Part shown: in pieces, positions 7,191-24,435 of the stretch
Position numbering within the stretch: the stretch's first letter is position 1
Layout: every line of letters starts with the position of its first letter
Assembly: GCA_030606285.1 (NCBI GenBank)
Contig: JAUWGS010000019.1
Location: forward strand, 1 to 39,498
Reading direction: 5' to 3'
From: Planctomycetales bacterium
GTDB lineage: Bacteria > 4484-113
DNA: 39,498 nt
Made by a program: the position numbers and the translations under genes
The notes under the pieces: model-generated
What the model was told of the DNA's origin: nothing
Databases searched by the model: none
What the model saw: only the letters and a program-made list of their open reading frames with translations

Positions 7191-9179
7191 ATGGCTAAGG
7201 CTAAAAAATCACCAAACGACGGCGGTGGAGCAGGGGCAACCAAAGCTGCTGAAACCGCCGAAACTGAAGATTCCGGATCCGAAGTCGAATCAGGCGCCGA
7301 GGAGTACACCGGCCGGTCCATTCAGGTACTAAAAGGCCTTGAGGCGGTGCGGCAGCGTCCGGCAATGTACATCGGCACCACCGCTGAAAGCGGGCTGCAT
7401 CACCTCGTCTGGGAGATTGTCGACAACGCCGTCGACGAGGCGATGGCCGGCTTCTGCCACAACGTCAAGGTTACCATCCACGACGACGGCAGCGTTTCGG
7501 TCTGGGACGACGGACGGGGCGTGCCGGTCGACCACATGGAGTCCGAGGGCATGAACGCCGCCGAGGTGGTCTACACGATGCTTCATGCTGGCGGCAAGTT
7601 CAGCTCCGGGGCCTACAAGGTCTCCGGCGGGCTGCACGGCGTGGGCAGCTCGGTCGTCAACGCCCTGTCGAAGCGCTTTGAAGTCGAGATCCACCGTAAC
7701 GGCAACAAGTACTTCCTCGCCTGCGAGCGCGGCAAGCTGTGCGAGAAGCTGCGTGAAACCGGCACGAGCCGCAAGAGGGGCACGCTCGTCCGGTTCTGGC
7801 CCGACCCCGATATCTTTGAGACAACCGAGTTCAAGTTCACCATCCTCGACGAGCGTCTGCGTGAGCTTTCGTTCCTGAACGGCGGGCTGACTATTGTCCT
7901 GCGTGACGAGAAACATGATGTCGAGCAGACGTACCGGGCCAAGGGCGGCTTAAAGGAACTCGTGAAGTATATGACCCGAGCCCGCAATCCGTTTCACCGG
8001 GTCATACACTACACGAAGATGGTGGGCGCGACGCGGGTCGAGTTCGCGCTGCAATGGACGGACTCCTACAAAGAATACATCCTCGCGTTCGCCAACAACA
8101 TCCGGACGAAGGATGGCGGCACGCACGTCACCGGCCTGAAGGCCGGGCTGACGAGAACGCTCAACAACTACGCGAACAGCTACGGCCTGGTGAAGAACGG
8201 TGCGCTGCTGCCCACCGGCGATGACATCCGCGAGGGGCTGACTGCCACCATCTCCGTATGGCTGGAGAACCCGCAGTTCGAGGGTCAGACGAAGGGTCAG
8301 CTTGGGAATTCCGACGTGAAGGGCATCGTGGAGTCGGTGGTCAACGAGATGCTCTCGTCCTACCTGCAGGAGCACCCCACCGATGCGCGGAAGATCTTCG
8401 CGAAAGCCGAGGTTTCCGCCCGTGCCAGGGATGCCGCCAAGAAGGCGCGGGACATCACGCGCAAACGTGCGGGGCTGGACACGATGCTGCCGGGGAAACT
8501 CGCCGACTGCGCCATCCGCGAGCCTGAGAATGCGGAGCTGTTCATCGTCGAGGGCAATAGCGCAGGCGGGAACGCCAAGCAGGGACGGGACCGCGAGTAT
8601 CAGGCGATACTCCCGCTACGCGGCAAGATACTCAACGTGGAGAAAGCCGGGCTGAACAAGATCCTGGGCAATGCGGAAGTGCGGGCGCTGATAACCGCCA
8701 TCGGCAGCGGTATGGGCGCGGATTTCGACATATCCCGGCTGCGCTACCACAAAGTGATAATAATGACCGACGCCGACGTGGACGGCGCGCACATACGGAC
8801 TCTCCTGCTGACGTTCTTCTTCCGGCATATGGTGGAACTCGTGGAGCGCGGCCACCTGTTCGTCGCTCTGCCGCCACTCTATCGCGTGCGCAAGGGCCAG
8901 AAGAGCTTTTATGTCTTCAACGACCAGGAGATGGAAACGAAGATGAAGGAGCTTGGCGGCAACGTGGAAGTCACCCGCTTCAAAGGCCTGGGTGAGATGA
9001 ACGCGAAGCAGCTCTGGGAAACGACGATGAATCCGGAGACGCGCACGCTTATCAGGATAACGATGGACGACTTGCGGAAGGCCGAAGAGACCTTCGAGAA
9101 GTTGATGGGGAGCGACGTCCAACCGCGCAAGGTTTTCATCACCGAATATGCGCGGAACGTCAAAAACCTCGATGTCTAG
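7191..9179 (+). CDS. gyrB: DNA gyrase subunit B (type IIA topoisomerase ATPase)
   Basis: ATPase subunit of DNA gyrase, which introduces negative supercoils together with GyrA. The 662-residue protein begins with a low-complexity acidic/alanine tail of about 40 residues, followed by the GHKL ATPase (EIVDNAVDEA, DDGRGVPVD, GGLHGVGSSVVNALS), the transducer domain with the QTKGQLGN switch-lysine loop, and a TOPRIM domain (FIVEGNSAGGNAKQGRDR, MTDADVDGAHIRTLLLTFF) and the tail RFKGLGEMNAKQLWETTM. Metal-binding residues are the Glu of VEGNSAGG and the DADVD acids. GyrB rather than ParE is favoured by these motifs, though gyrA is not in the window. It has its own promoter and converges with the lptD-like gene across 14 bases. 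Confidence 0.93.
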   Translation: MAKAKKSPNDGGGAGATKAAETAETEDSGSEVESGAEEYTGRSIQVLKGLEAVRQRPAMYIGTTAESGLHHLVWEIVDNAVDEAMAGFCHNVKVTIHDDGSVSVWDDGRGVPVDHMESEGMNAAEVVYTMLHAGGKFSSGAYKVSGGLHGVGSSVVNALSKRFEVEIHRNGNKYFLACERGKLCEKLRETGTSRKRGTLVRFWPDPDIFETTEFKFTILDERLRELSFLNGGLTIVLRDEKHDVEQTYRAKGGLKELVKYMTRARNPFHRVIHYTKMVGATRVEFALQWTDSYKEYILAFANNIRTKDGGTHVTGLKAGLTRTLNNYANSYGLVKNGALLPTGDDIREGLTATISVWLENPQFEGQTKGQLGNSDVKGIVESVVNEMLSSYLQEHPTDARKIFAKAEVSARARDAAKKARDITRKRAGLDTMLPGKLADCAIREPENAELFIVEGNSAGGNAKQGRDREYQAILPLRGKILNVEKAGLNKILGNAEVRALITAIGSGMGADFDISRLRYHKVIIMTDADVDGAHIRTLLLTFFFRHMVELVERGHLFVALPPLYRVRKGQKSFYVFNDQEMETKMKELGGNVEVTRFKGLGEMNAKQLWETTMNPETRTLIRITMDDLRKAEETFEKLMGSDVQPRKVFITEYARNVKNLDV

Positions 9180-9194
9180 CGGGCAAATCCCGCT
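9178..9194. terminator. Compact hairpin between convergent gyrB and lptD
   Basis: AGCGGG at 9178-9183 pairs with CCCGCT at 9189-9194 around a five-base loop CAAAT. The gyrB stop (9177-9179) and the lptD stop (9194-9196) overlap the two stem bases. There is no U-tract on either strand, so it may act as an RNA 3'-end stabiliser or a weak two-way terminator. Confidence 0.5.
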
Positions 9195-10693
9195 TAGAAC
9201 TTCAGCGCCACTTCGACTCCCGTGCTGCCGCGTGCGAAGTCGTAGTTGAGTCCGAGGTAGTACGCCCCGAACTCCTTACTCAGCCCCAGAATCAGGCTGT
9301 CGAAGTGCTTAAGATCGAAGTCGTAGGCTGCGGATACGCGCCCCGTCAGGTGCGGCAGCGCCTGGAAGTTCTTCGTCGCCGTCAGCAAATTCTCCGGGAA
9401 GTCGTCATCAAACCTGAAAGGGCTGCCGCCGAACTTGTCGGCGTGCGCGAACTCGACCGAGTCGATCCCCCAGGGAGTGCTCTTGGCCAGCTTGAGCCGT
9501 GAGCGCAGGGCCAGGAACTCGTTGTCGCCGAAGGAGTAGTCGTAGTAGTGCGCGCCAAACGCGGCCAAGAGCCTGATGTCGTGGTCCAGACGGAACGAGG
9601 GGGTCGTCAGTTCTATGTAACCGTAGCTGCTGCGCGAGGTGATTTCCGGGATGTCCTGCTTTAACTTGGCGATATTGACGCCGGCGACCACCTGCTGAAC
9701 GAGAGGCCAGTCCAGTTTAACCCTCTGCCACCCGTAGAAATCGTAGCGAGTCGTCTTGCCCACCCGCTCTTCCCATCGGTCGGTCGTTCGGTTGCGCCCG
9801 AAGTGCACGCCGATCCGCGAGTTGTCGGACGGGTCGGTGTAGACGAAGGCGTCCGCCCAGAACTCGTCGTTGCGCGAGTAGTAGTTCGAGTAGATGTCGG
9901 TCGAGACCTTGCCTACATCAAAGAAAGTGGCTTGCTTGATGTAGAAGCCGTCGTCATCGCTGTGTCCCGGCAGGGGCACGGTGAAGGAGACGATACTCCG
10001 CCCTTTCCGCAGCTTCGTCTTGAACCGCGGTATATAGCCTACACTGACCCCGCCGGCCTGGACCCGCACACCGCGCACTGAGAGGAACTCGTCAGGGGCA
10101 TAAAGCAGGCGCTTGACGCTCAGGACTAGATCCGCGTCGTCGGATTCAGTCGTCGTGATGCGTGCCTGGTGGAACTCGAATAACAGGACGCCGCTCTTGT
10201 CTTCGTAGAACTCCAGATCGCCGCCCGTCAGGTGAACCCGGGGATGATCGCTGCGGAACCTGACGTAACGCCGGTCTATCAGTCCGGTCTCGTCAGCGAA
10301 AAGCCCGGGATCGATGCGCACTGAGCCTGCCACTTCGCCCATCGAGCCGGTTCGCTCCACAAGATTGGCGACCAGGTCGGTGCCCGTCAGGGCCATCTCG
10401 TATTCCAGGATAGTGACCGTGGTGCAGCCGGGCACGGTGAATATGCTCGACTTCTCGTCCCAGACGGCGCTGTCGGCTCGCACTTCAACCGTCAGGCCGG
10501 GGAATACGGATTCTGTGTGAAGCACGACGTTGCCGCTGAGTTCCAGCTTGTCTCCGGAGATGTAGGTGCCGGTGTCCGCTTCGATGTAGTCGGCGTCGTT
10601 CTCTCCCGGTAAGAGCGAGATGTTGCATAGCGCGGCTTTCGGGGCAACGACAGCCGCAATTGTCAGCACCAGGAGGATGAGGTAGCCCCGCAT
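9194..10693 (-). CDS. lptD: LptD/OstA-like outer membrane LPS assembly protein (short form)
   Basis: Outer-membrane protein proposed to insert lipopolysaccharide at the cell surface. The 499-residue protein has an N-terminal signal peptide (MRGYLILLVLTIAAVVAPKA), an OstA/LptA-like beta-jellyroll (about 30-165, with YIEADTGTYISGDKLELSGN) and a C-terminal part rich in alternating aromatic strands that ends in Phe (VALKF), as outer-membrane barrels do. The phrase VGYIPRFKTKLRKGRS recalls the YxPYF segment of LptD. It is much shorter than the roughly 780-residue E. coli protein, mainly in the barrel. The ATG at 10693 is chosen because longer forms start upstream of the promoter. It could be an LptD-like paralogue rather than the essential LptD. 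Confidence 0.7.
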   Translation of the reverse strand: MRGYLILLVLTIAAVVAPKAALCNISLLPGENDADYIEADTGTYISGDKLELSGNVVLHTESVFPGLTVEVRADSAVWDEKSSIFTVPGCTTVTILEYEMALTGTDLVANLVERTGSMGEVAGSVRIDPGLFADETGLIDRRYVRFRSDHPRVHLTGGDLEFYEDKSGVLLFEFHQARITTTESDDADLVLSVKRLLYAPDEFLSVRGVRVQAGGVSVGYIPRFKTKLRKGRSIVSFTVPLPGHSDDDGFYIKQATFFDVGKVSTDIYSNYYSRNDEFWADAFVYTDPSDNSRIGVHFGRNRTTDRWEERVGKTTRYDFYGWQRVKLDWPLVQQVVAGVNIAKLKQDIPEITSRSSYGYIELTTPSFRLDHDIRLLAAFGAHYYDYSFGDNEFLALRSRLKLAKSTPWGIDSVEFAHADKFGGSPFRFDDDFPENLLTATKNFQALPHLTGRVSAAYDFDLKHFDSLILGLSKEFGAYYLGLNYDFARGSTGVEVALKF

Positions 10694-10705
10694 TAGCCCG
10701 CGCGG

Positions 10706-10714
10706 ATTATAACA
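10706..10714 (-). promoter_or_regulatory. Extended -10 promoter of the lptD-like gene
   Basis: On the minus strand the sequence reads TGTTATAAT. The last T is 12 bases before the ATG at 10693, so the leader would be about six bases long. Confidence 0.6.
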
Positions 10715-10747
10715 CGGGGATTGCGGGAAGAGCGCAGCTGGGAAGCG

Positions 10748-10764
10748 GGGAGACACGGTCTCCC
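10748..10764. repeat. Perfect 7-bp palindrome between lptD and rimP promoters
   Basis: GGGAGAC at 10748-10754 and GTCTCCC at 10758-10764 flank ACG. It lies between the divergent lptD (10706-10714) and rimP (10804-10832) promoters and could be an operator or a hairpin. No binding protein can be assigned. Confidence 0.4.
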
Positions 10765-10803
10765 GGTGGACAGGGCTATCAACGCGACCGGGAGCGTATT
10801 GCT

Positions 10804-10832
10804 TTGCGACTGGGCTTGTGCTGTGCTAGAAT
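10804..10832 (+). promoter_or_regulatory. Promoter of the rimP-nusA-infB operon
   Basis: TTGCGA (10804-10809) is followed after 17 bases by TAGAAT (10827-10832), with TG one base before the -10, giving TGCTAGAAT. This is one of the few promoters here with both boxes. Transcription would begin near 10839 and produce a leader of about 73 bases containing a terminator-like hairpin. Confidence 0.65.
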
Positions 10833-10868
10833 TTGTGCGTCAGGACAGCAGGTGTACGATATCGCGGC

Positions 10869-10906
10869 GGCCACTTTCCTGGACGGGGCAAGGTGGCCTT
10901 TTGTTT
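10869..10906 (+). terminator. Terminator-like hairpin in the rimP leader (probable attenuator)
   Basis: GGCCACTTT (10869-10877) can pair with AAGGTGGCC (10890-10898) in nine base pairs including one G-U, closing a 12-base loop, and is followed at once by TTTTGTTT. This is a textbook intrinsic terminator, yet it lies between the operon promoter and the rimP ATG at 10912. Read-through would have to be controlled, as in leader attenuation. Confidence 0.65.
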
Positions 10907-10911
10907 GGACG

Positions 10912-11412
10912 ATGCTGGATTTAATCGAACTTGAGGAGAGACTCGGCGAGTTCCTCACCGAGAACAGCTTTGGCCTGGTTGATTTCCAGGTCACGGGTTC
11001 CGGTCGGGGACGCACGTTCAGGCTGTTCGTGGAGCGGAAGGACGGCTCGCCGGTGGACCTGAACGATTGCGCAGCGCTTTCTCCGAGGGTGAAGCTGTTT
11101 TTAAAGTCTAACCTCGTGTTCAACGATGACTCCTCGCTGCTTCTGAGCAGCCCGGGGGTTGACCGGTTGCTCAAGCGCGATGTTGATTTTGAGCGCTTTG
11201 CGGGCAGCGACGTGACGGTCAGCCTTCGCATAGAGGGCCGAAAGCTGACCCTTGCCGGAGAGTTGGCAGCCTGCGATAACGAGTCACTGAAGCTGAGGAC
11301 GAACGGGCTACCGCCTGCGCTCGATGGCGAAATGGGTATTGCAGCGAGCGACGGCGTGGTTTCACTTCCGCGCCGGCTGGTAAAGGAAGTTCGGTTGAGG
11401 GTCGAGGGCTAA
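10912..11412 (+). CDS. rimP: Ribosome maturation factor RimP
   Basis: Cytoplasmic factor for late 30S subunit assembly. The 166-residue protein matches RimP in layout: an N-terminal domain with LIELEERLGEFLTENSFGLVDFQV, the family hallmark of a conserved block ending LLLSSPGVDRLLKRDVDFERFAG, and a C-terminal SH3-like domain. The ORF could be extended upstream by 36 codons, but that part covers the leader hairpin, so I take the ATG at 10912 (MLDLIELEE), which fits the family start. It is followed three bases later by nusA, the usual partner. No strong Shine-Dalgarno precedes the ATG; the U-rich hairpin tail sits there instead. Confidence 0.88.
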   Translation: MLDLIELEERLGEFLTENSFGLVDFQVTGSGRGRTFRLFVERKDGSPVDLNDCAALSPRVKLFLKSNLVFNDDSSLLLSSPGVDRLLKRDVDFERFAGSDVTVSLRIEGRKLTLAGELAACDNESLKLRTNGLPPALDGEMGIAASDGVVSLPRRLVKEVRLRVEG

Positions 11413-11415
11413 GCT

Positions 11416-12597
11416 ATGAGAATCGACGCAAAGGTCTCGGCGGCGCTTCAGGAAATCGAGGTAACACGCGGCGTGCCCCGGCAGCGCATCATTGAGGCGC
11501 TTGTTGAGGCTATGAAGGCTGCCTATGAACGCAAGCACGGGCCCACGCCCAACCTGGAGCTGGAAATCGACATGGCCTCCTCCACCATCGAGGCGTACCT
11601 GAGCAAGAAGGTTGTCGAGCAGGTGGAGAGCCCTGAACTGGAGATTTCGCTCGAAGAAGCGCGGGGCTACGATCCCTCCGCTGAGGATGGCGACCTTCTA
11701 CTGATAGAGATTGAGCTGGGCGATCTCGGTTACTGGGGCGTCGCTACTGCAAAGACGATGATCAAGAGCCTGATCCGCCAGGCGGAGAAGGACCACATTC
11801 AGCGGGAGTACCGGACGCGCACCTACGATCTCATCTCTTGCACCATGCAGTTCGAAGAGCGCGGTGACCTGTTTGTGGAAACGCCGGACAAGGTTGAGGG
11901 CATTGTGCCGATGAAGGAGCGCATTGCGCACGAGCACGTGCGTTCGGGGCAAAGGCTGAAGTGCATGCTTGTCGAAGTGCGTTCGGGTAAAAGGAGCGGG
12001 CCGCTGCTCGTGTTCTCGCGCACCCATCCCGATCTCATCAAGCGCCTGATGGAGAACGAGATACCGGAGGTGCGCGAGGGAAGTATTGAGATTATGGCCA
12101 TAGCGCGCGACCCCGGATTCCGCGCCAAGGTCGCGGTGAAGAGCAACCTGCCGGAGCTGGATCCGGTCGGCACGTGCATTGGCAGCCGGGGTGTGCGGGT
12201 CACGGCGATCTCTCACGAACTTAGTGAGGAGAAAATAGACCTGGTGCCCTGGCGGGCCGACTCGTTTGAATTCATTGCTGAGGCGTTGTCGCCAGCCAAA
12301 GTGCTGTCCGTGGAGATTTTCGAGAACGAGAAGCGTGCCCTGGTCATCGTTCCGGACGACCAGATCTCACTCGCCATCGGCAAGTCGTGGCGGAATGTAA
12401 AGCTCGCCTCGCGCCTGACCAAGTACTTCCTGGAGGTCAAGAGCGTGTCCGAGATGGAGGCCGAGGAGGCGGGTCGGGCGGCGGCCGATAAGCCGCAGCC
12501 AAAGAAGGAAACGCCTGAAAAAGCCGTGAAGAATGCGCCGGCGGAAGCTGTGAAGGAAACGCCTGCGGAAACCGCGCCGGAAGGTGATAAAGCGTGA
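11416..12597 (+). CDS. nusA: Transcription termination/antitermination factor NusA
   Basis: RNA polymerase-associated factor that modulates pausing, termination and antitermination. The 393-residue protein has the RNAP-binding N-terminal domain (to about 125), an S1 domain (about 130-205), and two KH domains (CIGSRGVRVTAISHELSEEK in KH1; VPDDQISLAIGKSWRNVKLA in KH2). The C-terminal 40-odd residues are a Lys/Pro/Glu/Ala-rich low-complexity tail, not the acidic AR repeats of E. coli. The KH1 loop reads GSRG instead of the more common GxxG variants but keeps the pattern. The gene is tightly packed in the rimP-nusA-ylxR-infB operon, and its stop overlaps the ylxR start by four bases. NusA could itself act on the hairpin in the rimP leader. 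Confidence 0.95.
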   Translation: MRIDAKVSAALQEIEVTRGVPRQRIIEALVEAMKAAYERKHGPTPNLELEIDMASSTIEAYLSKKVVEQVESPELEISLEEARGYDPSAEDGDLLLIEIELGDLGYWGVATAKTMIKSLIRQAEKDHIQREYRTRTYDLISCTMQFEERGDLFVETPDKVEGIVPMKERIAHEHVRSGQRLKCMLVEVRSGKRSGPLLVFSRTHPDLIKRLMENEIPEVREGSIEIMAIARDPGFRAKVAVKSNLPELDPVGTCIGSRGVRVTAISHELSEEKIDLVPWRADSFEFIAEALSPAKVLSVEIFENEKRALVIVPDDQISLAIGKSWRNVKLASRLTKYFLEVKSVSEMEAEEAGRAAADKPQPKKETPEKAVKNAPAEAVKETPAETAPEGDKA

Positions 12598-20379: not shown

Positions 20380-20393
20380 CGCTTGGCGCTAGT
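20375..20393. terminator. Perfect 8-bp hairpin holding both stop codons
   Basis: ACTAGCGC (20375-20382) and GCGCTAGT (20386-20393) are exact inverted repeats around TTG. The plus-strand stem contains the kdsD TAG and the minus-strand stem contains the TAG of the convergent protease gene. No U-run follows on either strand. Confidence 0.6.
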
Positions 20394-23300
20394 ACTGCGT
20401 CAGTCCGCCCAGCGTCGGCGGAGGCAGAACGATTGTGAGCTTCTTCCCCGTATCGCAGCCCCAGAGCCATACGTTACCCGTTTGTGTGTCGACTGGAACG
20501 TCCAGCACGATTTCAGTGTCGCTCCAGCTCGTGATCTCCCCGGCAAGCACCGCGCCGTGCCCGCCGAGCACCAGCGCATCGGGATAATGCCCGTCGCCGA
20601 AGTTCTGCCCGGCGATGGTGAGCGTCTGGCCGCGGATGGCGCGTTCGGGTGTCAGGCTGTCCACGGCGGGGAAGGCGCGCATCATCACGTCGTCCAGATA
20701 CCAGCCTTCTCCCACCACCAGCGGGTCGCTGTCGAGCATAAACGCGACTTTCACCGGCTGGTTGTACGAAGAGAGATCGTAGACATCATGCTGCCACGAG
20801 CCGCTGCCGTGGTACCGGCCCAGGTAATCCCAGGTGTCCAGGTCGGTGGTTATGTAGACTTTGGCGTAATCGTAGTTGGTCTCGGTGTTCCACCAGTGGT
20901 GGAAGTACAATATCGGGCCGGTCACGCCCGTCAAGTCCAGCGTCGGCATAATCAGCCAGTCGTACTCGTAAGCGCCGTACTTGTGAGTGGACGGCTGACC
21001 GCAGTACGCGGAGTAGTCCCCGCGGAAGAATCGATACGTGCTTCGCTGCCACGTCCCGGGCCCGCTGGCGTCAATGATCTGCCAGTTGTCAGTGAAGTGG
21101 GCTGCGTCCTCGAAGTCATACGCGTAAAGCGGGGTGAAGAGCGGGTTGTTTACGTGATAGGTTACCTGCACCTCGTCTGATTGCTCGTCGCGGTCGTAGG
21201 CGCGAGCGGTAACGATAACATCGCCGTTGAAGACGAAACGGGAATTCCAGGAGAAGCTGAACGGCTCCGAGGTGTCCTCGCCGACGTAGTCGCCGTCCAT
21301 CCAGAAGCCGACGTAGGTTACTTCCTCGTCGTCTGTGGCATCCACTTCTATAAGGACGTCGCCCGAAACGTCGGCGTCGTCCGCCGGAGTGATGCTGTTG
21401 ATGCTCGGTGGGTTGGAACGCTCGTGCAGGTCAACATCGTCCACCCACGCTCCGCCGCCGGGAGGCGGCGAATAAATGGATGTCGAGTTCAGCTCAAAAG
21501 CCACGAAGACCTTCTCGCCTGCCCAGTCGTCCAGGTAGACCGCGCGGCTCTTCCAGGTGAGATCGTTGCCGGTGTAGGATTTAAGCTGGGTTTCGGTGCT
21601 GCCGTCTTCGCTGATTACGTAGACGCGCACATTATGCATCCCGGTGGTGACTTTGTAGCGCATGTAGTAGGTCATTGTGGGATCAGTTGCGCTCGTGAGA
21701 TCCAGCAGCGGTGAGAGGATTCGGTCGTGCTCGTTGTAGTCGTAACCCGCACCAATGCCGATGCAGCTGGGGGAGGAGTTGTAGGTGCTAGTCCGGCGCG
21801 CCCAGAATGCGTTGCCCGACGGGTCGAGAATCGCCCAGTTGTCCGTGTCGCTAAGGTCGTCGCTGAACGGCCACTGCCCGTCATTATCTACCGTGACGCT
21901 GATGACGTCGCTGTAGGTTTCGCCTTCGCTGTCGGTCGCCTTTGCGAGGATGTCCACGGTTGTGTTGTAGCAAGTTCGCGAGTTCCAGGTGACGGAGTAG
22001 CTGTCGCTCTCGCCGGTCGTGTCGAAGCCCACGATGTAATCATTGGCAAAGAAGTCCACCCGCGCAATCGTGCGTGTGTCGTAGCCGGTTGCAGTGACGG
22101 AAAACGTCACGTCGCCGCTGACTGTTGAGTCAGCGGTGGGAGCGGTGATGCTGACGGTCGGATGCGTGCCCGTTTCGACCGAAATATCAGCGGTCATTGA
22201 CGCGCCGCTGGCGGAGATATTCTCCACCTTCACGTACGAATCGGTGCCGGCGTAAGATTTGCTGGGCGGATTGCTGGTGTAGTTGAAAGTGTCATTGTTG
22301 CCCGAGTAGAACGGATCGGTAGGCTCTCCCCGGCTTCCGCCCTTGTAGTCCAGGTGGTCCTTGCCGTCGCCGTCGAGCCCGCCCGCAACTTCTACATCCA
22401 CCAGCCGGTGGCTGTCAGTTTTGTTGTTAGAGCGTGAATCGTCGCAGTGGTATATCATCAGGCCCGCGCCCGGTCGCGTCCCGTCGGTGCCCTCTTTCTG
22501 CCGGTTCTCCACCAGAAAGTACTCGTCGCCCGGATCGCCGTTAGTCCAGAGCTTCAGCACAAAGCGGTTCGTGGCTATTTGCGGGATGCTGTATGACGTT
22601 TCGTCTTCTGTAACTACCGTTGGCGTGATCCAGCCGTACTGTATCCGGTGCCAGGGGTCGAAGGCCGGCGGCCTATAGGTTTTGTCATAGTTGTAGGCCA
22701 TCATCGACCACTTGCCGACGCCGTCCGATGAGTCATCGGTGTCGTAGAGGTCTATCGCGCCCATGATATGCCCGTATTCGTGGGCAGCGCAGCACATGTT
22801 GTAGGAATCGTAGTCGAAGTCGCCGCCGAAGCCGCTGACGTAGTGCACGTCAACAATGACGCCGTCGGCGTAGTAGTTCATCCCGCTGCTCATGTGCGGC
22901 CACAGCCCGGGCTCGAACTCGGTATAGGGATAAAACAGCAGGAAAGAATCCACGTAGCCGTCGCCGTCCACATCGAACTCTGAGAAATCCGTGTGGTCGT
23001 CCATCGACTGAGCCGCAAAGAGCAGAAGCTCCATAATGGTGGCCCAGTTCTTGTAGTAGTTCTTGGTGTTCGGAGCGGTGTACCAGCCGTCGTGATTGCC
23101 CTGGTCATCAATGGTGCCCTCGATATCTAGGTCGCCGTAGGAGACTTCTTCGTAGAAATCGTGAAACGATGGATTTGCGCCGGTGCCGTCGGCCAGCAAT
23201 AGGTCGTAGGTGTAGTCATAATCCCACGCGTCTGTGTCCGCCGGCTCGTCGGAAAACTCCACTCGCACGACGATAATTTTGTTCGTGCCCTTGGAGTTGG

Positions 23301-23676
23301 CGATGGAAACGCGCTTGCCCGGCGTGGGCTGGTAGCCCAGTTCCAGCACGTCGAACTGGTTTATCACGCCGTCAAAGTTCAGATCCAGATGCGCAAAGCG
23401 GAGTTCTTCGTCTTCCAGTTGGACAGTGCAGTCCTCGCTGGTCTCTCCGAAGTGCGCCGCCATCGCCACCAGCGCATCTTCGGTCGGTAACTGGAACGGT
23501 TCGGGTTCGCCGAACGTCCATTCCTGCAGTATCGGGCGCATCTCGTCCCACAGCCGCCGGTTGGCTTCGCTTTCGTCGAGCCATTCCTGGGGCGGTTGGA
23601 CAACTGCAATCGCGCTGAACGTGAGCGCTAGAACGGCCGTCAGTGCCAGGATTATGAGGTGAGTAAGCTTCTTCAT
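20389..23676 (-). CDS. Secreted M6-family metalloprotease with dockerin-like loop and beta-domains
   Basis: The 1095-residue protein has a signal peptide (about 1-25), a calcium-loop motif DLNFDGVINQFDVLELG (98-114) like one half of a dockerin, and a peptidase M6 (immune inhibitor A-like) domain with zinc motif HEYGHIMGAID (299-309) and a Met-turn SMMAYN. Next come an Ig-like domain (about 506-597), a jelly-roll/MAM-like module (about 603-750), another Ig-like domain (757-842), a second jelly-roll (850-1000) and a C-terminal IPT/TIG domain (about 1005-1073). It is thus a large exported protease with adhesion-like modules. Its ATG overlaps the stop of the upstream cohesin-like lipoprotein by four bases. 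The substrate is unknown. Only one dockerin repeat is visible, so the cohesin-binding idea is tentative. Confidence 0.88.
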   Translation of the reverse strand: MKKLTHLIILALTAVLALTFSAIAVVQPPQEWLDESEANRRLWDEMRPILQEWTFGEPEPFQLPTEDALVAMAAHFGETSEDCTVQLEDEELRFAHLDLNFDGVINQFDVLELGYQPTPGKRVSIANSKGTNKIIVVRVEFSDEPADTDAWDYDYTYDLLLADGTGANPSFHDFYEEVSYGDLDIEGTIDDQGNHDGWYTAPNTKNYYKNWATIMELLLFAAQSMDDHTDFSEFDVDGDGYVDSFLLFYPYTEFEPGLWPHMSSGMNYYADGVIVDVHYVSGFGGDFDYDSYNMCCAAHEYGHIMGAIDLYDTDDSSDGVGKWSMMAYNYDKTYRPPAFDPWHRIQYGWITPTVVTEDETSYSIPQIATNRFVLKLWTNGDPGDEYFLVENRQKEGTDGTRPGAGLMIYHCDDSRSNNKTDSHRLVDVEVAGGLDGDGKDHLDYKGGSRGEPTDPFYSGNNDTFNYTSNPPSKSYAGTDSYVKVENISASGASMTADISVETGTHPTVSITAPTADSTVSGDVTFSVTATGYDTRTIARVDFFANDYIVGFDTTGESDSYSVTWNSRTCYNTTVDILAKATDSEGETYSDVISVTVDNDGQWPFSDDLSDTDNWAILDPSGNAFWARRTSTYNSSPSCIGIGAGYDYNEHDRILSPLLDLTSATDPTMTYYMRYKVTTGMHNVRVYVISEDGSTETQLKSYTGNDLTWKSRAVYLDDWAGEKVFVAFELNSTSIYSPPPGGGAWVDDVDLHERSNPPSINSITPADDADVSGDVLIEVDATDDEEVTYVGFWMDGDYVGEDTSEPFSFSWNSRFVFNGDVIVTARAYDRDEQSDEVQVTYHVNNPLFTPLYAYDFEDAAHFTDNWQIIDASGPGTWQRSTYRFFRGDYSAYCGQPSTHKYGAYEYDWLIMPTLDLTGVTGPILYFHHWWNTETNYDYAKVYITTDLDTWDYLGRYHGSGSWQHDVYDLSSYNQPVKVAFMLDSDPLVVGEGWYLDDVMMRAFPAVDSLTPERAIRGQTLTIAGQNFGDGHYPDALVLGGHGAVLAGEITSWSDTEIVLDVPVDTQTGNVWLWGCDTGKKLTIVLPPPTLGGLTQY

Positions 23677-24221
23677 TGCCCCTCACCTCCCGGCCGGCTG
23701 ACCCGGATGTCGTGGCGAAGCGAGTCGCGTACCACGAGTTCCTCTTCCAGCCACACAAGTTGCACCGGCAGGCGGTTGGTCAGCAACCTGAACTGTGCCC
23801 GCAGCAGGACGCCCCTGCCGGTCGCGCCTGCGCTGATGCTTCGGCGGGTAAGCGTAAACGGTATTCGTCCGGGCTCGTCGGTCCGGTGGAAGAAGATGAC
23901 CTCCGGCGGGTCGCCCAGGAAGCTTCCCTGGCTCACGCCCGTAAGCTCCAGGCTCTCGGCGTCGTAAGAAAGCGTCCCCGCGATCTGGTAGAGGTCGAAG
24001 AAGCTCTCGGCCGCAAGCGTAACCGTCAGCTTACTCACATCACCTTCGGTTGAGAAATCCTCGGTGAGGGTAAGCGTATTAGCATCAACGCCGAATGTCA
24101 GCGGTTCCACACCTGACACGTCCGGCTGGCTGCCGTTGCCGCCCCCGCAGGCGGTGCAGGCAAGCAGGAATACCGCGAAAACCGCGCCGATGCCGCATAG
24201 TCTGCGCAGCGTTAGTGTCAT
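23673..24221 (-). CDS. Cohesin-like lipoprotein
   Basis: The 182-residue protein has a lipoprotein signal (hydrophobic core, lipobox LLAC with Cys22, then a flexible CGGGNGSQ linker). The remaining 140 residues fit a cohesin-type beta-sandwich: LTVTLAAESFFDLYQIAGTL, SYDAESLELTGVSQGSFLG, then an FFHRTDEPGRIPFTLTRRS-like strand and GVLLRAQFRLLT. Cohesins bind dockerins in cellulosome-type complexes, but single cohesin-like domains on lipoproteins also occur without that role. The stop overlaps the ATG of the downstream M6 protease (ATGA), so the two are made in coordination. The protein would sit on a membrane, facing the periplasm or outside. The cohesin call is by pattern only. Confidence 0.65.
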   Translation of the reverse strand: MTLTLRRLCGIGAVFAVFLLACTACGGGNGSQPDVSGVEPLTFGVDANTLTLTEDFSTEGDVSKLTVTLAAESFFDLYQIAGTLSYDAESLELTGVSQGSFLGDPPEVIFFHRTDEPGRIPFTLTRRSISAGATGRGVLLRAQFRLLTNRLPVQLVWLEEELVVRDSLRHDIRVSRPGGEGQ

Positions 24222-24251
24222 ATCAAAAGCCCTGAAGAGTTATCCCCCCTG

Positions 24252-24257
24252 ATTATA
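24252..24257 (-). promoter_or_regulatory. -10 element of the cohesin lipoprotein/protease operon
   Basis: Minus-strand TATAAT directly preceded by TTG. A start near 24245 leaves a leader of about 23 bases to the ATG at 24221. No clear -35. Confidence 0.45.
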
Positions 24258-24272
24258 CAACTTTCGTTCTTC

Positions 24273-24311
24273 CTGTAGGGCGGGGACCTGTGCCCCGCCT
24301 TCTGGCTACAG
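24273..24311. repeat. Palindromic repeat element, copy 1 of a covarying family
   Basis: GGCGGGG (24279-24285) pairs with CCCCGCC (24293-24299) around ACCTGTG. An outer arm CTGTAG (24273-24278) pairs with CTACAG (24306-24311). The first 33 bases align with the reverse complement of 35630-35662 with identical flanks CTGTAGGG and CCTTCTGG, and stem differences that preserve pairing. The look is that of a REP/REPIN-like mobile palindrome. Confidence 0.65.
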
Positions 24312-24325
24312 ACAAGGCTCCCCAT

Positions 24326-24404
24326 GGGTAGGCCGGGCTCACCAGCCCGGCTCCTAGAACGAACCAGACGAGCGGGGCTAGTTAGCCCCGCCTACCCGGT
24401 TTTT
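24326..24404. repeat. Clover-like nested palindrome with T-run
   Basis: An outer stem GGGTAGG (24326-24332) / CCTACCC (24391-24397) encloses two perfect inner hairpins: GCCGGGCT/AGCCCGGC (24332-24351) and GCGGGGCTA/TAGCCCCGC (24372-24391). The stem bases at each end are shared. A GGTTTTT follows on the plus strand, so read in that direction it is terminator-like. It sits between the end of addA and the lipoprotein promoter. Confidence 0.6.
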
Positions 24405-24435
24405 GCCCTCCCCACATTTACCGTGAGCTTCTTTC

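What the first reader, a model, noticed from the sequence alone, without database searches (positions are those of the whole stretch)
20389..24221. Cohesin-like lipoprotein coupled to an M6 protease with a dockerin-like loop
The two genes overlap by four bases. The first looks like a membrane-anchored cohesin; the second has a DxNxDGxIxxxD calcium loop of dockerin style before its protease domain. If the two bind each other, this would be a minimal surface docking system for a protease, unlike cellulosomes, which carry glycoside hydrolases.
Basis: partly seen in the sequence, partly recalled or inferred. Interest (0 to 1): 0.65.

Follow-up and report, generated by a model that had tools for sequence, protein, structure and literature searches.

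The report
Lipoprotein cohesin paired with docking protease
In a little-studied bacterial lineage, one type of secreted protease appears to be tethered to the cell by a partner lipoprotein made from the overlapping gene upstream, using a pared-down version of the plug-and-socket (dockerin-cohesin) known from cellulose-digesting complexes.

Summary
The two overlapping genes are real. The 182-aa protein is a lipoprotein with a cohesin fold: its model matches solved cohesins (VIA Z 12.9), although its Pfam cohesin score is just under the cut-off. The 1095-aa protein is an M6 metalloprotease with HEYGH. Its N-terminal loop is one F-hand, matching only the second repeat of a dockerin, so strictly a half-dockerin.

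The pairing is not a one-off. In 10 genomes of this class (a relative is labelled UBP7), all 19 M6 proteases with this loop lack a lipobox and sit directly behind an overlapping cohesin-lipoprotein gene. The other 8 have a lipobox, no loop and no cohesin neighbour. None of 77 M6 loci elsewhere has either feature. The loop is nearly as conserved as the active site, and partner trees match by subfamily.

Best explanation: the cohesin lipoprotein is a separate lipid anchor that captures its protease through the half-dockerin. Binding, calcium use and surface exposure are inferred. A complex could not be modelled, and the loop region was predicted with low confidence. Protease docking through dockerins is already known; the dedicated, overlapping one-to-one pair with an N-terminal half-dockerin is a new variant.

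The parts
23673..24221 (-). cohesin-like lipoprotein gene (182 aa)
   Evidence: ORF; PF00963 23.0 bits; cohesin fold
24147..24221 (-). lipoprotein signal peptide, residues 1-25, lipidated Cys25
   Evidence: Cys25 invariant and Gly26 nearly invariant in 13 family members
23706..24041 (-). cohesin domain, about residues 61-172
   Evidence: Pfam stretch 61-167; model residues 17-150 (protein residues 44-177) align with solved cohesins
23673..23676 (-). ATGA start/stop overlap of the two genes
   Evidence: all 19 pairs overlap, by 1-11 bp
23683..23690 (-). GGAGGTGA, ribosome-binding-like stretch for the protease gene inside the cohesin gene
   Evidence: read in the sequence printed
20389..23676 (-). 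M6-family metalloprotease gene (1095 aa)
   Evidence: TIGR03296 E 3.5e-41
23605..23676 (-). ordinary Sec signal (no lipobox), residues 1-24, AxA end
   Evidence: A24 invariant, A22 nearly invariant
23329..23385 (-). half-dockerin: F-hand residues 98-116, DLNFDGVINQFDVLELGYQ
   Evidence: PF00404 second repeat; profile match to the second repeat of the class's own dockerins, probability 92%; mean pairwise identity 0.56 against 0.20 just before it
22447..23268 (-). M6 catalytic domain, residues 137-410
   Evidence: TIGR03296
22768..22782 (-). HEYGH zinc motif, residues 299-303
   Evidence: invariant H299, E300, G302, H303, G306, D309
20389..22185 (-). C-terminal Big_7 domains, two choice-of-anchor J (MAM-like) domains, a TIG-like domain and the end LPPPTLGGLTQY
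   Evidence: TIG below its cut-off
24252..24257 (-). TATAAT 30 bases before the cohesin start, possible -10 element
   Evidence: read; not listed by the promoter scan

Best explanation
The upstream gene makes a lipoprotein whose cohesin domain is held in the membrane by a lipid. The overlapping gene makes a secreted M6 protease that has no lipid anchor of its own but carries a half-dockerin (one calcium-type F-hand) between its signal peptide and catalytic domain. The two are made together, exported, and bind through cohesin and half-dockerin, so the lipoprotein is a separate, dedicated lipid anchor for its protease. Because the half-dockerin lies before the catalytic domain, cleavage behind it would set the protease free; that step is speculation. 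Shown: gene overlap, cohesin fold (by prediction), lipoprotein signal, M6 family and zinc motif, second-repeat dockerin match, all-or-none association. Inferred: binding, calcium use, outer-membrane or surface location, release.
For: Cohesin: all 50 listed Foldseek hits are cohesins or their complexes; VIA Z 12.9 over 130 residues to C. acetobutylicum CohA2 (6kgd), 12.2 to the A. fulgidus non-cellulosomal cohesin (2xdh); profile E 2e-4 to solved cohesins. Association: 27 M6 places in 10 genomes of the class. The 19 with the N-terminal loop have a Sec signal and an overlapping upstream cohesin lipoprotein; the 8 without the loop have a lipobox and no such neighbour; Fisher p 4.5e-7, not corrected for relatedness. 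Outside: of 77 other M6 loci none has a cohesin neighbour by this profile, and none has the N-terminal loop when the positions of the listed loops are read. From the cohesin side, the 19 strongest matches in the class are exactly these 19 genes. The loop is conserved 0.56 against 0.20-0.35 on either side and 0.63 at the active site. Protease and cohesin trees both show the same three subfamilies, with no partner swap between them. The only invariant columns among 13 cohesins are the lipid Cys25 and Gln79; by ungapped extension of the alignment Gln79 falls at the place of C. thermocellum cohesin Asn37, a dockerin-contact residue (PMC5772552).
Against: No direct evidence of binding; a complex could not be modelled. 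The half-dockerin region has pLDDT under 50 in the M6 model, so its fold is not confirmed. Pfam scores for cohesin and dockerin are under the curated cut-offs, and only 4 of 13 family members match PF00963 at E 0.01. One F-hand may be too little for a stable cohesin complex. The genome has full C-terminal dockerins that could be the cohesin's real partners. Two of the lipobox M6 proteases carry full C-terminal dockerins, so a direct lipid anchor does not exclude docking. A single origin of all 19 pairs is not excluded (AU p 0.275), so the 19 cases are not independent.
Confidence: 0.7

Rival explanations
1. The cohesin lipoprotein binds the protease pro-region not to anchor it but to hold it as an inactive or properly folded precursor during export, like a dedicated chaperone or inhibitor.
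For: The loop lies in the pro-region before the catalytic domain; overlapping one-to-one gene pairs are typical of chaperone or inhibitor pairs too (own knowledge).
Against: The 8 M6 proteases without a partner all carry their own lipobox, which anchoring explains directly and chaperoning does not.
Confidence: 0.15
2. The cohesin lipoprotein is a general anchor for the full C-terminal dockerins of the cell; the protease loop is an isolated calcium site and the two genes are merely co-expressed.
For: Full two-repeat dockerins are encoded in the genome and beside several pairs; the loop region is not confidently folded.
Against: The loop occurs only in M6 proteases with the cohesin neighbour: 19 of 19 against 0 of 8 and 0 of 77. 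The subfamilies of loop protease and cohesin match.
Confidence: 0.12
3. The small protein has a cohesin-like beta-sandwich but has no docking role; the resemblances are incidental.
For: Pfam scores under the cut-offs.
Against: Fold match to solved cohesins; strict co-occurrence with a dockerin-type loop.
Confidence: 0.03

Closest known systems
Cohesin-dockerin modules of cellulosomes (type I, e.g. C. thermocellum, C. acetobutylicum CohA2)
   Same: cohesin fold; calcium-loop repeat of the dockerin; docking of a secreted enzyme
   Different: single cohesin on a lipoprotein, not a scaffoldin; one N-terminal F-hand instead of two repeats; protease cargo; each cohesin gene overlaps its one partner gene
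Non-cellulosomal cohesins and dockerins (Archaeoglobus fulgidus; Peer et al. 2009, known here only by citation)
   Same: cohesin outside cellulose degradation; fold match to 2xdh
   Different: here a class-wide, repeated overlapping pair with an M6 protease
Cloacimonadota 'Ca. Stygibacter' complex with dockerin-bearing S8 and C25 peptidases (PMC8542988)
   Same: proteases carried by dockerins
   Different: there a 3,755-aa scaffoldin with tandem cohesins and C-terminal dockerins; here one-to-one
Immune inhibitor A-type M6 metalloproteases
   Same: M6 domain and zinc motif
   Different: N-terminal half-dockerin absent from the other M6 loci examined

Membership tests
Cohesin (PF00963) | Pfam score over the curated cut-off | tested here: not met
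   23.0 bits against 24.1
Cohesin (PF00963) | cohesin jelly-roll fold | tested here: met
   model (mean pLDDT 67.8) matches solved cohesins, Z up to 12.9
Cohesin (PF00963) | binds a dockerin | not testable with these tools
   no binding assay; a complex could not be modelled
Dockerin type I (PF00404) | two calcium-loop F-hand repeats | tested here: not met
   only the second repeat is present, residues 95-113
Dockerin type I (PF00404) | calcium-loop pattern D/N at positions 1, 3, 5 and D at 12 | tested here: met
   holds in all 19 partners (listing); D109 invariant
Dockerin type I (PF00404) | three-dimensional dockerin fold | tested here: inconclusive
   region has pLDDT under 50
M6 metalloprotease (TIGR03296) | curated score and HExxHxxGxxD motif | tested here: met
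   142 bits against 110.8; motif invariant
Cellulosome | scaffoldin with several cohesins | tested here: not met
   one cohesin in this protein; 4 Pfam cohesin matches in the genome, all on different contigs; genome 91% complete
Bacterial lipoprotein | signal peptide ending in an invariant lipobox Cys | tested here: met
   Cys25 invariant in 13 of 13; lipidation itself not tested

The most novel reading that the evidence does not exclude
A class-wide 'split lipoprotein': instead of carrying a lipobox, a whole group of secreted proteases is plugged by an N-terminal half-dockerin into its own cohesin lipoprotein encoded by the overlapping upstream gene, and cleavage of the pro-region could release it.
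Probability: 0.55. Interest if true: 0.65.

Novelty: new variant of a known kind. Interest (0 to 1): 0.52.

Why it matters
It would be the simplest form of the cohesin-dockerin principle: one socket, one plug, one enzyme, from two overlapping genes. The natural contrast between lipobox M6 proteases and cohesin-paired ones in the same class makes the anchoring role directly testable. A single-repeat dockerin would also show how little of the module is enough for specific binding, and would offer several parallel pairs for studying specificity.

Tried and rejected
A cohesin-protease complex: I tried to submit one chain reading through both genes with a custom four-letter step. Structure of the half-dockerin: low confidence. 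Pfam alone: both modules are under the cut-offs, so it settles nothing. I considered that the loop is a general M6 feature: rejected, since the other M6 loci show such loops only inside the M6 domain. I considered that subtilases share the pairing: among the subtilase loci whose catalytic motif my pattern caught (16 of 30), none has a separate cohesin-lipoprotein neighbour. I considered a fused cohesin-M6 ORF in G004: it was only an over-extended start. More than one origin of the pair could not be shown. A literature search for UBP7 found nothing on this lineage among the 12 papers listed.

Full report
What is there. A GGAGGTGA stretch inside the end of the first gene precedes the start of the second, which fits translational coupling. 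Upstream lies a 214-base gap with a TATAAT; the flanking genes are RecB/AddA-like nuclease genes on one side and LPS-related genes on the other (KpsF/KdsD-type isomerase, Kdo-transferase-like), so the cell is probably diderm (inference).

The lipoprotein. Pfam cohesin scores 23.0 bits against a cut-off of 24.1. Sequence alone is therefore borderline, but the AlphaFold2 model (mean pLDDT 67.8, 4 sequences) matches only cohesins in the 50 listed Foldseek rows. VIA-align gives Z 12.9 over 130 residues. A profile of 13 family members finds solved cohesins at E 2e-4. In the 13 members two columns are invariant: the lipobox Cys25 and Gln79. Extending the alignment without gaps puts Gln79 at Asn37 of the C. 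thermocellum cohesin, which contacts the dockerin (PMC5772552); this mapping is by sequence, with the C. thermocellum sequence taken from my own knowledge, and not by superposition.

The protease. TIGR03296 at E 3.5e-41, residues 137-410, with HEYGH; then Big_7, two choice-of-anchor J domains and a TIG-like domain. The loop at 98-109 fits only the second half of Dockerin_1. The class has full two-repeat dockerins of its own at the C-termini of other proteins. Their second repeat (e.g. DPNDDGQIDERDVSFIGY) matches the N-terminal loops of the proteases (e.g. DLNHDGTVDERDLLVLG), with hhalign probability 92% over 23 columns. So it is best called a half-dockerin. Its fold was not predicted with confidence.

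The comparison that carries the case. An M6 profile search of the 10 genomes of the class gave 27 places. Nineteen have the N-terminal loop, an ordinary Sec signal, and directly upstream a cohesin lipoprotein gene that overlaps by 1-11 bases. The other eight (G000 C32, G001 C91, G002 C51, G007 C77 and C104, G008 C219, G009 C8 and C98) start with a lipobox, lack the loop and have no such neighbour. Each M6 protease of the class thus seems to be tied to a lipid either directly or through the cohesin. In 77 M6 loci of other organisms neither the loop (in the N-terminal place) nor the neighbour was found. Seen from the cohesin side, the 19 best matches in the class are the same 19 genes. Fisher p is 4.5e-7 within the class, but relatedness is not corrected for: the 19 fall in three well-supported protease subfamilies, and one common origin is not excluded. 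The cohesins fall in the same three subfamilies, so partners have stayed together, including tandem pairs in G005 and G006. The loop is conserved at 0.56 mean identity between flanks of 0.20 and 0.35, near the 0.63 of the active site.

How it most likely works. Shown: co-expression geometry, cohesin fold (predicted), lipoprotein signal, protease family, half-dockerin sequence, strict co-occurrence. Inferred: the lipid-held cohesin captures the protease by the half-dockerin, replacing a lipobox. Whether this is on the cell surface or in the periplasm is open. The position of the loop before the catalytic domain allows release by pro-region cleavage, which is speculation.

What it is not. It is not a cellulosome: one cohesin, no multi-cohesin scaffoldin found. 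The loop is not a full dockerin by definition. Carrying a protease is not in itself new: dockerin-bearing S8 and C25 peptidases with a scaffoldin are reported in Cloacimonadota (PMC8542988), and this genome has C-terminal dockerins on S8 and M6 proteases. New, as far as the searched papers show, are the dedicated overlapping pair, the single N-terminal repeat and the all-or-none exchange with a lipobox.

Where it comes from. The window's genome is a 2.3-Mb, 36-contig assembly, 91% complete. A contig of a same-order genome (G005 C22, 180,457 bases) has the length of a GenBank record labelled UBP7 (JAGRNT010000011.1), and the two carry the same pair. So the lineage is probably the candidate phylum UBP7; this rests on that label.

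Noticed in passing
24275-24299 (-), and the gap 24222-24435: A palindromic repeat GGCGGGGCACAGGTCCCCGCCCTAC lies upstream of the cohesin gene; 25 matches to its pattern without mismatch and 33 with up to 2 mismatches in the genome, none for the reversed control. It looks like a REP-type element; further palindromes lie beside it.
   Followed up: partly
20389-20424 (-) and L084, L072, L083, L069: Several secreted proteins of the class, proteases and TIG proteins, share a C-terminal end like (I/V)xLPxPxLxGLxQ(Y/L/I) after a TIG domain. It may be a sorting or anchoring signal; unexplained.
   Followed up: no
L072:517-2199, L075:1394-3076, L069:8235-9974, L083:13970-15670: Proteins of about 560-580 aa with a C-terminal two-repeat dockerin, some with TIG domains, are encoded close to cohesin-M6 pairs.
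   Followed up: partly
G000 C32 (L085:5636-8653 and 8803-11544): Adjacent M6 (lipoprotein) and S8 proteases in the same genome both end in full two-repeat dockerins.
   Followed up: partly
L077:7832-8683: A second cohesin-like lipoprotein family of about 270-300 aa, conserved in most genomes of the class, without an M6 neighbour in the loci listed; its partner is unknown.
   Followed up: no
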